Shown piece by piece: positions 45,466 through 52,786 of a stretch of 64,000 bases of DNA. Origin of the DNA: Burkholderia savannae (GTDB lineage: Bacteria > Pseudomonadota > Gammaproteobacteria > Burkholderiales > Burkholderiaceae); assembly GCF_001524445.2 (NCBI RefSeq), contig NZ_CP013417.1:496001-560000 (forward strand), given 5' to 3'. How positions within the stretch are numbered: position 1 is the stretch's first letter; the number at the start of each line of letters is the position of its first letter. Below the pieces are notes generated by a model that made no database searches, had not been told where the DNA came from, and saw only the letters and a list, made by a program, of their open reading frames with translations. The position numbers were made by a program, and so were the translations under genes.

Positions 45466-46446
45466 TCAATTCGGCGAACGTTCCGCGCCCGGCCGGACCG
45501 GATAGGGCACCGGCATTCCGGCCACATGCGATCGAACGTTCTCGAGCGCCATTCTGGCTACCGCCTGCTGCGCTTCCAGCGTTTCCGCGGCGACGTGCGG
45601 CGTCAGGATGACGTTCGGCAGGCGGCGCAACGCTTCGCCGACGTTCGGTTCGTCGGCGAACACGTCGAGTCCGGCCCAGCCGAGTCGCCGTTCGGCCAGC
45701 GCGCCGGCCAGCGCGGCTTCGTCGACGAGCGAGCCGCGCGCGATGTTGACGAGGGCGCCGGCCGGCCCGATCGCGCCGATGACGTCGCGGCCGACGAGGC
45801 CGCGGTTATGCTCGTCGGCGCGGCACGCGACGACGAGATGATCGGCCCAATGCGCGAGGTCGAGCGCGGTGGAAAAGAACGTGAGGCCCGATTCGGGCTT
45901 CGCCCGCAGTGCGGTGTACCCGACTTGCGCCTCCATCGCGACGAGCCGCGCCGCGATCCGCCGCCCGATCGCGCCGAGCCCGACGATTCCCACGCGCGCG
46001 CCGGCAATGCCGCGTCCGCGCGGGAAGGGAATCGGGCGCGCGACGCGCCAGTTTCCGTCGGCGACGAAGCGATGCAGCGCCGGAAGCTGCCGCACGCACG
46101 CCGACAGCAGGCAGATCGCGAATTCCGCGACGGCCGACGCGTTCGCGTCGGGGCAGTGCGCGACGACGATCCCGCGATCGCGCGCGGCGGGGAGATCGAC
46201 GCCTTCGAACCCCGAGCCGCAGCAGCAGATCATCGACAGGTTCGGCAGCCGCGCCATCGCGTCCCGGCTCGCGCCGATCCGGCCGACCGTCAGCAGCACG
46301 TTTGCCTGCTCGGCGCCGCGCAGGTCCGCGCGCGGCGCCGACAGATCGACCGGGCCCGCGACCGGAAACTCGCGTCGAACGGCGTCGAGGGTGACGTCTG
46401 GCGTGCAGACGGTGGCGAAGATGCCGGGGGGCGGAGCGGCTTTCAT
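45466..46446 (-). CDS. D-2-hydroxyacid dehydrogenase (phosphonate cluster)
   Basis: A 326-residue NAD(P)H-dependent reductase of the D-isomer 2-hydroxyacid family. The Rossmann motif is VGIVGLGAIGRRIAARL near residue 150. Catalytic Arg and Glu lie in ARGSLVDEAALAGAL and FADEPNV, and His in ILTPHVAAETL. Placed last in a seven-gene cluster opened by a PEP mutase, it could reduce phosphonopyruvate to phosphonolactate; a reductase of this general kind acts so in valinophos-type pathways. The start at 46446 has GAGG 9 bases upstream; an ATG at 46461 overlaps the upstream stop (ATGA) and would add MRPRT. Confidence 0.82.
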   Translation of the reverse strand: MKAAPPPGIFATVCTPDVTLDAVRREFPVAGPVDLSAPRADLRGAEQANVLLTVGRIGASRDAMARLPNLSMICCCGSGFEGVDLPAARDRGIVVAHCPDANASAVAEFAICLLSACVRQLPALHRFVADGNWRVARPIPFPRGRGIAGARVGIVGLGAIGRRIAARLVAMEAQVGYTALRAKPESGLTFFSTALDLAHWADHLVVACRADEHNRGLVGRDVIGAIGPAGALVNIARGSLVDEAALAGALAERRLGWAGLDVFADEPNVGEALRRLPNVILTPHVAAETLEAQQAVARMALENVRSHVAGMPVPYPVRPGAERSPN

Positions 46447-46457
46447 CGTTCGGGGCC

Positions 46458-47285
46458 TCATGCGCCGATGCAGACCGCACCGGCCGCGATCACGACGCAT
46501 GAAACGAAGCGCTTCGCCGTGACCTGCTCGTTCAGGAAGATCCGGCCGATCAGCACGGCGAACACGACGCTCGTTTCCCGGATCGCGGATACGGCGCCCA
46601 TCGCGCCGAATTGCATCGCCCAGACGACGATGCCGTACGCGACGATCGACACGATGCCGCCGCCGACCGACGAGCCGATGTCGATTCGCGGCGCGCTCAG
46701 CGCGCGCGGGCCGCGGGCCGCCACGAACACGGCGGGCATCAGTGCGTAGAACACGAAGGTCCACGCGACGTACGAGACCGAATTGCCGGACAGGCGCACG
46801 CCGATGCCGTCGATGACGGTGTACAGCGCGATCGTGACGCCCGTCATGAGCGCTGCCGCCGCGTTCGCATACGACACCTTGCTGCGCTGCCACGCGAGAC
46901 TGACGATGCCGGCCGAAACGAGCGCGATGCCGATCAGGTGGAGCGCGCCGAGGCGCTCGCCCGCGAAGAGCGCCGCGCCGAGCGTGACGAGAAGCGGAGA
47001 CGAGCCGCGGGCGATCGGATAAGCCTCGCCGAGATCGCCGCGCCGGTACGCATAGACGAGGCTCAGGTTGTAGCCGATGTGCACGATGCCCGAAGCGACG
47101 ACGTACGGCCAGGACGGCGCGGCGGGAGCGGGCAGGAACGCGACGAAGGCGATCGCGACGGCGGCGATGCCGATGCTCATCCACGTCATCGACAGGAAGC
47201 GGTCTCGATTGCCGTGCAGAATCGCATTCCATGACGCGTGCAGCAATGCTGCGAGCAACACCAGGCCACCGACATAACTGATCAT
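46458..47285 (-). CDS. EamA/DMT-superfamily transporter (phosphonate cluster)
   Basis: A 275-residue inner-membrane protein with ten hydrophobic segments forming two EamA repeats (for example YVVASGIVHIGYNLSLVYAY and VAYGIVVWAMQFGAMGAVSA). Such carriers export amino acids and small metabolites. In this setting it is a candidate exporter of the phosphonate product. ATG at 47285 chosen; a TTG at 47309 adds eight residues. It is translationally coupled or nearly so to the dehydrogenase gene. Confidence 0.82.
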   Translation of the reverse strand: MISYVGGLVLLAALLHASWNAILHGNRDRFLSMTWMSIGIAAVAIAFVAFLPAPAAPSWPYVVASGIVHIGYNLSLVYAYRRGDLGEAYPIARGSSPLLVTLGAALFAGERLGALHLIGIALVSAGIVSLAWQRSKVSYANAAAALMTGVTIALYTVIDGIGVRLSGNSVSYVAWTFVFYALMPAVFVAARGPRALSAPRIDIGSSVGGGIVSIVAYGIVVWAMQFGAMGAVSAIRETSVVFAVLIGRIFLNEQVTAKRFVSCVVIAAGAVCIGA

Positions 47286-51536: not shown

Positions 51537-51910
51537 GGTGCGCTCACGTTCGTGGTGATGGGACGAGGGCCGGTGCCGCCGGGAGGCGCGGCGCCGGCCG
51601 ATGGTTCGCAACGCGGGACGGCGGCGCGGCTGCCTGGCGCTGGCCGTATGCCCCGCCAACGCCGGATGGATGCCCGCCAGGCAGACCGGCGCGCCCGCCC
51701 GGCGCAACGGGTGCCCGGGCGCCCGGGCGCCCGGGCCGATTCGGCGGCGAGCGGGCCGCCAGGCCGAATCGCTTCGCGCGTCGCCGATGCGCCCGACGCC
51801 GCGGCGAACGCGTCGCATTGCCCGCCATGTCGCATCGCGCGCGGGCTTGGGCTACGCCGCATCGCGCTCCGTTGCTTGCCGCTTCGGCGAAATCGCACGA
51901 ATCACGCGAA
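51537..51910. other. Spacer between pepM and the aminotransferase gene
   Basis: 374 bp on the operon strand without a supportable frame. It carries a GCCCGGGCGCCCGGGCGCCCGGGC stretch at about 51711-51735 that can form a very stable hairpin, which may reduce or regulate read-through from pepM. Confidence 0.5.
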
Positions 51911-52786
51911 TCACGCGGCGAGATACTTGTGCTCGGCGGCCTGCACTTCGAATTCGCCGGTGAGCTCGAAGATGTCGTTCAGCGTCGCGATTTCGTGCTC
52001 GATCCCGGCCACGGTCTGGCTCTCGTAGATCGCGCGCGTCACCCGTCGCATGTTGGTCACGGACGCGCGCAGGCTGTGATTGGCCCAGATCACGGCCGAC
52101 ACGCGCGCGTCGCGGAACGCGGACGTCGGCGTCTTGTAGTACTTCGTCGGCACGATGACGATCGGGGCGCGCTGCGACCATTGGGTGCAGAAGTCGAGAA
52201 TCTCTTGCCCGTCGGCCTTCTTCGAATGGATCAGCACCGCGTCGGCGCCCGCGTCGCAATATGCGTCGGCGCGCCGCAGCGCCTCTTCCATCGGGCAGCC
52301 GCTGACGAGCGCCTCGATTCGCGCCACGACGCAGAAATCCGAATCGGTCTGACTGTCCTTCGCCGCGCGCAGCTTGCCGCAGAATTCCGCGATGTCCGCG
52401 AGGTCCTGGCCCGAGCCGAGGAACGAATTCATCTTCGGGAAGAGCTTGTCTTCGAGGCAAACGCCGGCGATGCCGAGCTGCGAGAGCTTCTTGACGAGCC
52501 GTCGCACGTTGTTGAAGTTGCCGAAGCCGGTGTCGCCGTCGAGCAGGATCGGCACGGACGTGTGGTCGGCCATGAATTCGACGACGTCGACGACCTGGGT
52601 CCACGACGCTTCGTTGCGGTCGGTCAGCCCGAGCGATGCGGAGATCGACAGGCCCGAGCCCCAGATCGCCTTGAAGCCGACTTCCTCGGCGATTTTCGCG
52701 CTCAGCGCGTTGTGCGCCTCCATGAAGAACTCCAGCTCTTTTCCGAAAATCAGTTCCTTCAGGACGCGTGCTTTTGTCTTTGTCAT
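51911..52786 (-). CDS. pepM: Phosphoenolpyruvate mutase
   Basis: A 291-residue PEP mutase of the isocitrate lyase superfamily, which rearranges PEP to phosphonopyruvate and so makes the C-P bond. The diagnostic loop E112-D113-K114-x5-N120-S121 (LEDKLFPKMNSF) separates it from lyases. Asp56 (GLTDRNEASW) and the magnesium ligands Asp83/Asp85 (ILLDGDTGFGN) are all present. Start at 52786 after AGGAAAGGTG. It is first in the cluster, 374 bp before the aminotransferase, and is the committed step in every known phosphonate pathway. Confidence 0.93.
   Translation of the reverse strand: MTKTKARVLKELIFGKELEFFMEAHNALSAKIAEEVGFKAIWGSGLSISASLGLTDRNEASWTQVVDVVEFMADHTSVPILLDGDTGFGNFNNVRRLVKKLSQLGIAGVCLEDKLFPKMNSFLGSGQDLADIAEFCGKLRAAKDSQTDSDFCVVARIEALVSGCPMEEALRRADAYCDAGADAVLIHSKKADGQEILDFCTQWSQRAPIVIVPTKYYKTPTSAFRDARVSAVIWANHSLRASVTNMRRVTRAIYESQTVAGIEHEIATLNDIFELTGEFEVQAAEHKYLAA

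What the first reader, a model, noticed from the sequence alone, without database searches (positions are those of the whole stretch)
45466..52786. Seven-gene phosphonate biosynthesis cluster without a phosphonopyruvate decarboxylase
A PEP mutase with intact EDK-x5-NS loop, Asp56, Asp83 and Asp85 is followed on the same strand by two aminotransferases, an Fe(II)/2OG dioxygenase, a LuxR, an EamA exporter and a D-2-hydroxyacid dehydrogenase. Four of the junctions are short or overlapping. Most pathways remove CO2 from phosphonopyruvate with Ppd; none is encoded between ubiA and proC. The aminotransferase (to phosphonoalanine) or the dehydrogenase (to phosphonolactate) would have to supply the driving force. 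The gene set does not match any phosphonate pathway I can name, so the product may be new.
Basis: partly seen in the sequence, partly recalled or inferred. Interest (0 to 1): 0.85.

Follow-up and report, generated by a model that had tools for sequence, protein, structure and literature searches.

The report
Phosphonate cluster missing its decarboxylase gene
A Burkholderia carries a rare gene set that probably makes an unknown compound with a carbon-phosphorus bond; related clusters in other bacteria hold a decarboxylase gene exactly where this one has a gap, so the cell may borrow that step from another of its own pathways.

Summary
In detail: pepM and six same-strand genes lie between ubiA and proC, PepM passes its family cut-off, and no ppd was found in the window. 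The reading 'a pathway that skips decarboxylation' is only partly supported. (1) The genome has two ppd genes on another contig, each beside its own pepM; PepM and Ppd each exceed their cut-offs in 63 of 65 Burkholderia genomes. (2) The core pepM-AT1-PhyH-AT2 belongs to a rare, scattered cluster family; in both relatives I could read (Azospirillum thermophilum plasmid, Photorhabdus) ppd lies between pepM and AT1, where the window has a 374-bp gap. (3) AT2 passes the 2-aminoethylphosphonate aminotransferase model, whose substrate is made by Ppd. (4) luxR-eamA-dehydrogenase is absent from those relatives and occurs without pepM, apparently under purifying selection, in another Burkholderia, so the dehydrogenase need not be the driver. 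Best reading: a working cluster that lost its local ppd and uses a Ppd in trans, making a hydroxylated aminoethylphosphonate-type product of unknown structure. Rewiring through phosphonoalanine stays open. That an aminotransferase or a 2-hydroxyacid dehydrogenase can pull PepM is already published. New variant of a known kind.

The parts
51911..52786 (-). pepM, phosphoenolpyruvate mutase
   Evidence: TIGR02320 378.8 bits, over cut-off; EDKLFPKMNS, D56, D83, D85; best solved match 1m1b
51537..51910 (.). 374-bp gap, 76.7% GC, where the read relatives carry ppd; no ppd trace found
50295..51536 (-). AT1, class I/II PLP aminotransferase family protein, the rare marker of this cluster family
   Evidence: PF00155; K249, N188, Y219, R392 invariant in 48 aligned relatives
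49393..50229 (-). PhyH-family Fe(II)/2OG dioxygenase
   Evidence: PF05721; H121, D123, H219, R230, R231 invariant in 38 aligned relatives
48212..49396 (-). AT2, class V aminotransferase of the PhnW/AepZ family
   Evidence: TIGR03301 367.1 bits against 360.8; PRK13479 354.1 against 296; but TIGR02326 334.5 against 400.8 (on the longer 604-aa frame); best solved match AEP-pyruvate transaminase
47409..48140 (-). LuxR-type regulator with autoinducer-binding domain
   Evidence: PF03472 and PF00196; also in G083 without pepM
46458..47309 (-). EamA-family membrane protein, possible exporter
   Evidence: PF00892; TIGR03340 'phosphonate utilization associated' 150 bits, below its cut-off 288.15
45466..46446 (-). 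D-2-hydroxyacid dehydrogenase; link to the phosphonate core uncertain
   Evidence: PF00389/PF02826; best solved matches general 2-hydroxyacid dehydrogenases; same unit without pepM in G083

Best explanation
A working member of a rare, laterally scattered phosphonate cluster family with core pepM-(ppd)-AT1-PhyH-AT2. PepM makes phosphonopyruvate. In this lineage the cluster's own ppd is gone from between pepM and AT1, and phosphonopyruvate is decarboxylated in trans by one of two Ppds encoded on another contig, most likely the near-universal Burkholderia one. AT2 aminates phosphonoacetaldehyde to 2-aminoethylphosphonate; PhyH hydroxylates it or a derivative (as PhnY* does to AEP); AT1, a PLP enzyme with intact catalytic residues, acts on a further intermediate. 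EamA may export the product and LuxR may control it. Shown: gene content, intact motifs, gene order in two relatives, Ppd copies elsewhere, no ppd trace in the gap. Inferred: that ppd was lost, that a Ppd works in trans, each reaction after PepM, the product, export, regulation.
For: ppd sits between pepM and AT1 in both readable relatives: Azospirillum thermophilum plasmid (pepM 72%, AT1 70%, PhyH 60% identical) and Photorhabdus sp. CRCIA-P01 (pepM 61%, AT1 51%, PhyH 41%, AT2 48%). A B. ubonensis Ppd shares contig length 65537 with the B. ubonensis PhyH relative. Of the 30 best relatives of the Azospirillum Ppd, 18 share a contig length with an AT1 or PhyH row, against 10 of the other 89. Two Ppds in the own genome; Ppd over cut-off in 63 of 65 Burkholderia genomes. 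AT2 is of the PhnW/AepZ family. No sign of decay: 103 of 103 AT1 columns and 57 of 57 PhyH columns invariant in the relatives taken as ppd-bearing are kept.
Against: No expression or chemistry. The own Ppds are only 33-42% identical to the cluster type and each belongs to another locus. The contig-length join is indirect: 9 of 15 contig lengths that carry AT1 and PhyH show no Ppd row, though only 120 of 7366 Ppd rows were listed and the Photorhabdus Ppd itself is not among them. AT2 fails one of three AEP-transaminase models. AT1's role is not explained. Polarity (loss here rather than gain elsewhere) rests on few relatives.
Confidence: 0.5

Rival explanations
1. Rewired pathway: after loss of ppd, transamination pulls PepM. 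AT1 (or AT2) turns phosphonopyruvate into phosphonoalanine, PhyH hydroxylates it, and the product is a hydroxylated phosphonoalanine derivative.
For: No local ppd; two PLP aminotransferase-family enzymes; transamination by PnaA is known to pull PepM (PMC11867202); ppd-less form seems kept in related species: AT1 90% in B. sp. ABCPW 14 and PhyH 87% in B. mayonis, and no Ppd row of the B. mayonis contig length is among the 120 listed; contig length 85070 may be another ppd-less member.
Against: AT1 also occurs in clusters that have Ppd, so it is not a substitute that came with the loss; no conserved AT1 or PhyH column changed; AT2 is of the AEP family; two Ppds are present in the cell.
Confidence: 0.22
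2. The D-2-hydroxyacid dehydrogenase reduces phosphonopyruvate to phosphonolactate and pulls PepM, as in the valinophos-type route.
For: A D-2-hydroxyacid dehydrogenase is in the run; the route is known (PMC12871164; VlpB named as phosphonopyruvate reductase in PMC11867202); the dehydrogenase is rare in the genus, 2 of 65 genomes.
Against: luxR-eamA-dh occurs without pepM, AT1, PhyH and AT2 at the same site in G083, intact with dN/dS 0.27, 0.19, 0.23; no relative of LuxR, EamA or the dehydrogenase in the two read relatives of the core (E <= 1e-5, 30 kb and 14.6 kb); best solved relatives are general 2-hydroxyacid dehydrogenases.
Confidence: 0.12
3. Decaying cluster: with ppd gone the pathway no longer makes its product.
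For: ppd is missing, and so are the FemX-like protein and the second AT1 of the Azospirillum cluster; the FemX-like protein had no match in the own genome (a search without a positive control).
Against: All seven frames are open; catalytic motifs intact; AT1 and PhyH kept at 87-90% identity in other Burkholderia; conserved columns all kept.
Confidence: 0.1
4. Not biosynthesis but phosphonoalanine breakdown of the PalA/PalB kind (hydrolase plus aminotransferase).
For: PalA is a close homologue of PepM and works with an aminotransferase (PMC8154272 passages).
Against: The protein fails the phosphonopyruvate hydrolase model (223.4 against 374.4 bits) and passes the mutase model.
Confidence: 0.03

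Closest known systems
pepM-aepY-AT1-PhyH-AT2 cluster of Azospirillum thermophilum plasmid NZ_CP029358 and its counterpart in Photorhabdus sp. CRCIA-P01 (no product known to me)
   Same: Same four core genes in the same order
   Different: They have ppd between pepM and AT1, a FemX-like protein and further genes; no match to the window's LuxR, EamA and dehydrogenase
Phosphonoalamide pathway (PnaD/PnaA), PMC11867202
   Same: PepM and an aminotransferase, no decarboxylase needed
   Different: No ATP-grasp ligase among the seven proteins; AT1 identity to PnaA not tested; PhyH and AT2 extra
Flavophos cluster (bsf) of Burkholderia, PMC12871164
   Same: Burkholderia, PepM without Ppd, an EamA-family gene
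   Different: Uses a 2-phosphonomethylmalate synthase, a PsfC-like enzyme and a DUF849 enzyme; none among the seven proteins
Own-genome pepM-ppd-class V aminotransferase locus (L025)
   Same: PepM and an AEP-type aminotransferase (37.8% identical to AT2)
   Different: Has ppd and nucleotidyltransferase-like parts; no AT1 or PhyH seen (by reading)
PhnY*/PhnZ oxidative AEP route (PMC8154272 passages)
   Same: PhyH-family dioxygenase; PhyH gets 106.5 bits on the PhnY-type model NF052437, cut-off 500
   Different: That route is catabolic and has PhnZ; none of the seven proteins has another domain of that kind in the Pfam scan

Membership tests
Phosphoenolpyruvate mutase (TIGR02320) | Score over the curated cut-off and EDK-x5-NS motif | tested here: met
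   378.8 against 319.55; EDKLFPKMNS
Phosphoenolpyruvate mutase (TIGR02320) | Mutase activity | not testable with these tools
   needs an assay
Standard 2-aminoethylphosphonate route (PepM-Ppd-AepZ) | ppd in the cluster | tested here: not met
   no ppd in the window; two elsewhere in the genome
Standard 2-aminoethylphosphonate route (PepM-Ppd-AepZ) | AEP aminotransferase | tested here: met
   AT2 over TIGR03301 and PRK13479, below TIGR02326; solved matches
Phosphonoalamide-type (PnaA) route | Aminotransferase specific for phosphonopyruvate | not tested
   no PnaA sequence was compared; activity needs an assay
Phosphonoalamide-type (PnaA) route | ATP-grasp ligases | tested here: not met
   none among the seven proteins
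Valinophos-type (VlpB) route | Phosphonopyruvate reductase | tested here: inconclusive
   D-2-hydroxyacid dehydrogenase present but also found without pepM; VlpB sequence not compared
Flavophos/2-phosphonomethylmalate clusters | Homocitrate-synthase-like enzyme and DUF849 enzyme | tested here: not met
   none among the seven proteins
pepM-ppd-AT1-PhyH-AT2 cluster family | Core genes in this order | tested here: met
   four of the five core genes, same order; ppd missing

The most novel reading that the evidence does not exclude
A natural switch of the reaction that pulls PepM: a cluster built around Ppd lost it and now runs on transamination (or reduction) of phosphonopyruvate, giving a hydroxylated phosphonoalanine-type product not yet described, next to an orphan quorum-sensing receptor gene.
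Probability: 0.22. Interest if true: 0.7.

Novelty: new variant of a known kind. Interest (0 to 1): 0.48.

Why it matters
The core pepM-(ppd)-AT1-PhyH-AT2 is shared by Burkholderia, Azospirillum and Photorhabdus, and AT1 or PhyH relatives are named from Pseudomonas, Serratia, Vibrio and others; I found no paper that describes it (searches of an open-access library), so it may mark an unexplored phosphonate product class. The ppd-less form is a natural experiment on how PepM, whose equilibrium lies far toward PEP (PMC12871164), is pulled forward: by a shared Ppd of another pathway in the same cell, or by a new coupling step. Either answer bears on genome mining that sorts clusters by the presence of ppd.

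Tried and rejected
Phosphonopyruvate hydrolase/PalAB catabolism: fails TIGR02321. Cluster ppd moved elsewhere in the genome: the two own Ppds are only 33-42% identical to the four cluster-type Ppds compared, which are 45-76% identical to each other. Decayed ppd in the gap: nothing above chance in the rows shown. Lux-box-like palindromes before pepM, luxR and eamA and in the gap: best scores reached by 146, 44, 140 and 47 of 300 shuffles. RNA families in 42000-56000: none. Repeats that would mark the core as an inserted element: I saw nothing convincing among the listed ones (lists capped at 20 and 25). More clusters in whole genomes: AT1 in 1 of 249 (family), 1 of 65 (genus) and 1 of 398 (phylum) genomes, each time the own genome only; PhyH in 8 of 369 (class), seven of them only 39-43% identical over part of the protein. 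The plasmid search gave Azospirillum, and for AT1 also a 37% match in Piscirickettsia.

Rows used: contig-length join with 120 of the 120 listed AT1 rows (234 found), 46 of 104 PhyH rows (the closest) and 119 of the 120 listed Ppd rows (7366 found; one row has no contig). Control: pairs of those rows show no change in 6 of 105 (AT1), 3 of 91 (AT1 without P0004) and 8 of 45 (PhyH) cases.
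Full report
What is there. On the - strand between ubiA and proC lie pepM, AT1, PhyH, AT2, luxR, eamA and a D-2-hydroxyacid dehydrogenase gene. PepM is over the PEP mutase cut-off and far below the phosphonopyruvate hydrolase cut-off; its best solved relative is PEP mutase 1m1b. AT2 is just over the 2-aminoethylphosphonate aminotransferase cut-off TIGR03301 and well over PRK13479, but below TIGR02326; its best solved relatives are AEP-pyruvate transaminases. 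PhyH keeps H121, D123, H219 and R230-R231 in 38 of 38 aligned relatives, which I recall as the iron and 2-oxoglutarate ligands of such enzymes. AT1 keeps K249, N188, Y219 and R392 in 48 of 48, which I recall as the PLP and carboxylate residues of class I aminotransferases.

No ppd in the window, two in the genome. tblastn with five valid Ppds found nothing in the window. The genome has two strong Ppds on contig C2. One lies in L024 with a PepM, a TauD-like dioxygenase and an aldehyde dehydrogenase; the other in L025 with a PepM that has a nucleotidyltransferase-like C-terminal part and a class V aminotransferase (names other than PepM and Ppd from reading the frames). L025 resembles the CMP-AEP envelope route (recalled). 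In the genus PepM exceeds its cut-off in 63 of 65 genomes and Ppd in 63 of 65. So Ppd is near-universal there, and this genome has three PepMs and two Ppds.

Relatives show where ppd belongs. A pattern scan of 84,980 species genomes with AT1 found one relative, Photorhabdus sp. CRCIA-P01 (such a scan finds close relatives only, and kin of the own genome may be left out). Its locus reads pepM, ppd, AT1, PhyH, AT2, a further class V aminotransferase, a FemX-like protein, a methyltransferase and an ATP-grasp protein (the last four named from reading). On an Azospirillum thermophilum plasmid the order is pepM, aepY, AT1, PhyH, AT2, FemX-like, an EamA-like protein, a second AT1 (some names from reading). 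In both, ppd fills the pepM-AT1 interval; in the window it is 374 bp of 76.7% GC without ppd trace. The window's LuxR, EamA and dehydrogenase have no match at E <= 1e-5 in either locus.

In the protein database the closest named relatives are B. sp. ABCPW 14 (AT1 90%), B. mayonis (PhyH 87%) and B. ubonensis (AT1 73%, PhyH 64%). A B. ubonensis Ppd, 63% identical to the Azospirillum one, shares contig length 65537 with the B. ubonensis PhyH. No Ppd row has the contig length of the B. mayonis PhyH (4439942) or of the own AT1 and PhyH rows (4228278) among the 120 listed. Against it, 9 of 15 contig lengths with AT1 and PhyH show no Ppd row; but the list was cut at 120 of 7366, and the Photorhabdus Ppd is itself not on it. 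Contig length 85070 (AT1 68%, PhyH 60%) may be another ppd-less member.

Is the ppd-less form still under constraint? Of 103 AT1 columns invariant in 15 relatives taken as ppd-bearing, 103 are kept in the own protein and in that of ABCPW 14; of 57 such PhyH columns, 57 are kept in the own and the B. mayonis protein. Among pairs of the ppd-bearing rows themselves only 6 of 105 (AT1) and 8 of 45 (PhyH) do as well. This speaks against decay and gives no hint of a changed active site; it cannot exclude one.

The luxR-eamA-dh unit is separable. In G083, an unnamed Burkholderia with ProC 96% identical, ubiA and proC flank luxR, eamA and dh (76, 90 and 81% identical), while pepM, AT1, PhyH and AT2 have no match in that 15-kb stretch. 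The three genes are open with dN/dS 0.27, 0.19 and 0.23 (one pair of species). In G246 and G093 ubiA and proC are neighbours with none of the seven between. Either G083 lost the four core genes or the core arrived next to an existing unit; I cannot tell. The dehydrogenase occurs in 2 of 65 Burkholderia genomes. A role as phosphonopyruvate reductase is possible but not favoured.

What is known. PMC12871164 (abstract and parts 1-3 of 8 read) states that phosphonopyruvate formation is usually pulled by a decarboxylase, an aminotransferase or a 2-hydroxyacid dehydrogenase, and describes the Burkholderia flavophos cluster, whose content differs. PMC11867202 (abstract and parts 1-2 of 6 read) shows that PnaA pulls PepM by transamination and uses VlpB as phosphonopyruvate reductase. 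PMC8154272 (passages) describes PhnY*, PhnW, PalA and PalB. PMC12723261 (passages) calls Ppd the most common coupling step. PMC7988079 (passages) mentions HiVir-like clusters in Photorhabdus, a different system. PMC3742214 (passages) places the orphan bpsR5 on chromosome 1 of B. pseudomallei; PMC5717390 (passages) names btaR5 as an orphan luxR of B. thailandensis. My searches for a description of this cluster found none in the open-access library; subscription papers are mostly not in it.

Judgement. The cluster is real and its product unknown. The most economical reading is loss of ppd from a cluster that otherwise follows Ppd-AepZ logic, with the step supplied from elsewhere in the genome (0.5). 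A switch to transamination remains open (0.22).

Noticed in passing
L024:10203-14655 (own genome C2, about 1313200-1317650): A second phosphonate locus: pepM, ppd, a TauD-like dioxygenase and an aldehyde dehydrogenase in a row (last two named from reading). Its PepM is only 35% identical to the window's.
   Followed up: partly
L025:8280-12243 (own genome C2, about 1416280-1420240): A third phosphonate locus: PepM with a nucleotidyltransferase-like C-terminal part, ppd, class V aminotransferase, next to a CDP-alcohol phosphatidyltransferase-like frame; near-universal PepM and Ppd in the genus (63 of 65 each) suggests an AEP envelope route.
   Followed up: partly
window 47409-48140 and L049:7863-8576: The LuxR may be the orphan quorum-sensing receptor R5 of the pseudomallei group (bpsR5 lies on chromosome 1 in B. 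pseudomallei by PMC3742214). If so, that receptor sits beside phosphonate genes in this species. Identity not tested.
   Followed up: partly
L022:10535-12492: In the Azospirillum plasmid PhyH and AT2 are annotated as one CDS, but matches to the window proteins fall in different frames (PhyH in 2, AT2 in 3), so the record seems frameshifted there rather than a true fusion. Described only.
   Followed up: partly
window 45052-45271: Long hexamer tandem array (AGCCGA, 36.7 copies) between ubiA and the dehydrogenase gene.
   Followed up: no
L023:5651-8315: A Piscirickettsia salmonis plasmid carries a 2OG-Fe(II) oxygenase gene overlapping a 37% relative of AT1, a possible oxygenase-PLP enzyme pair outside phosphonate clusters.
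   Followed up: no
protein rows P0016 and P0143: Proteins with AT1 and PhyH domains together (693 aa) and with PEP_mutase and PhyH domains together (392 aa): possible natural fusions that would tie PhyH to AT1 and PepM.
   Followed up: no
G083:C2:1737490-1738338: G083 has a second PepM over cut-off while only one Ppd was found there, at the other PepM; a further PepM locus without its own Ppd.
   Followed up: no
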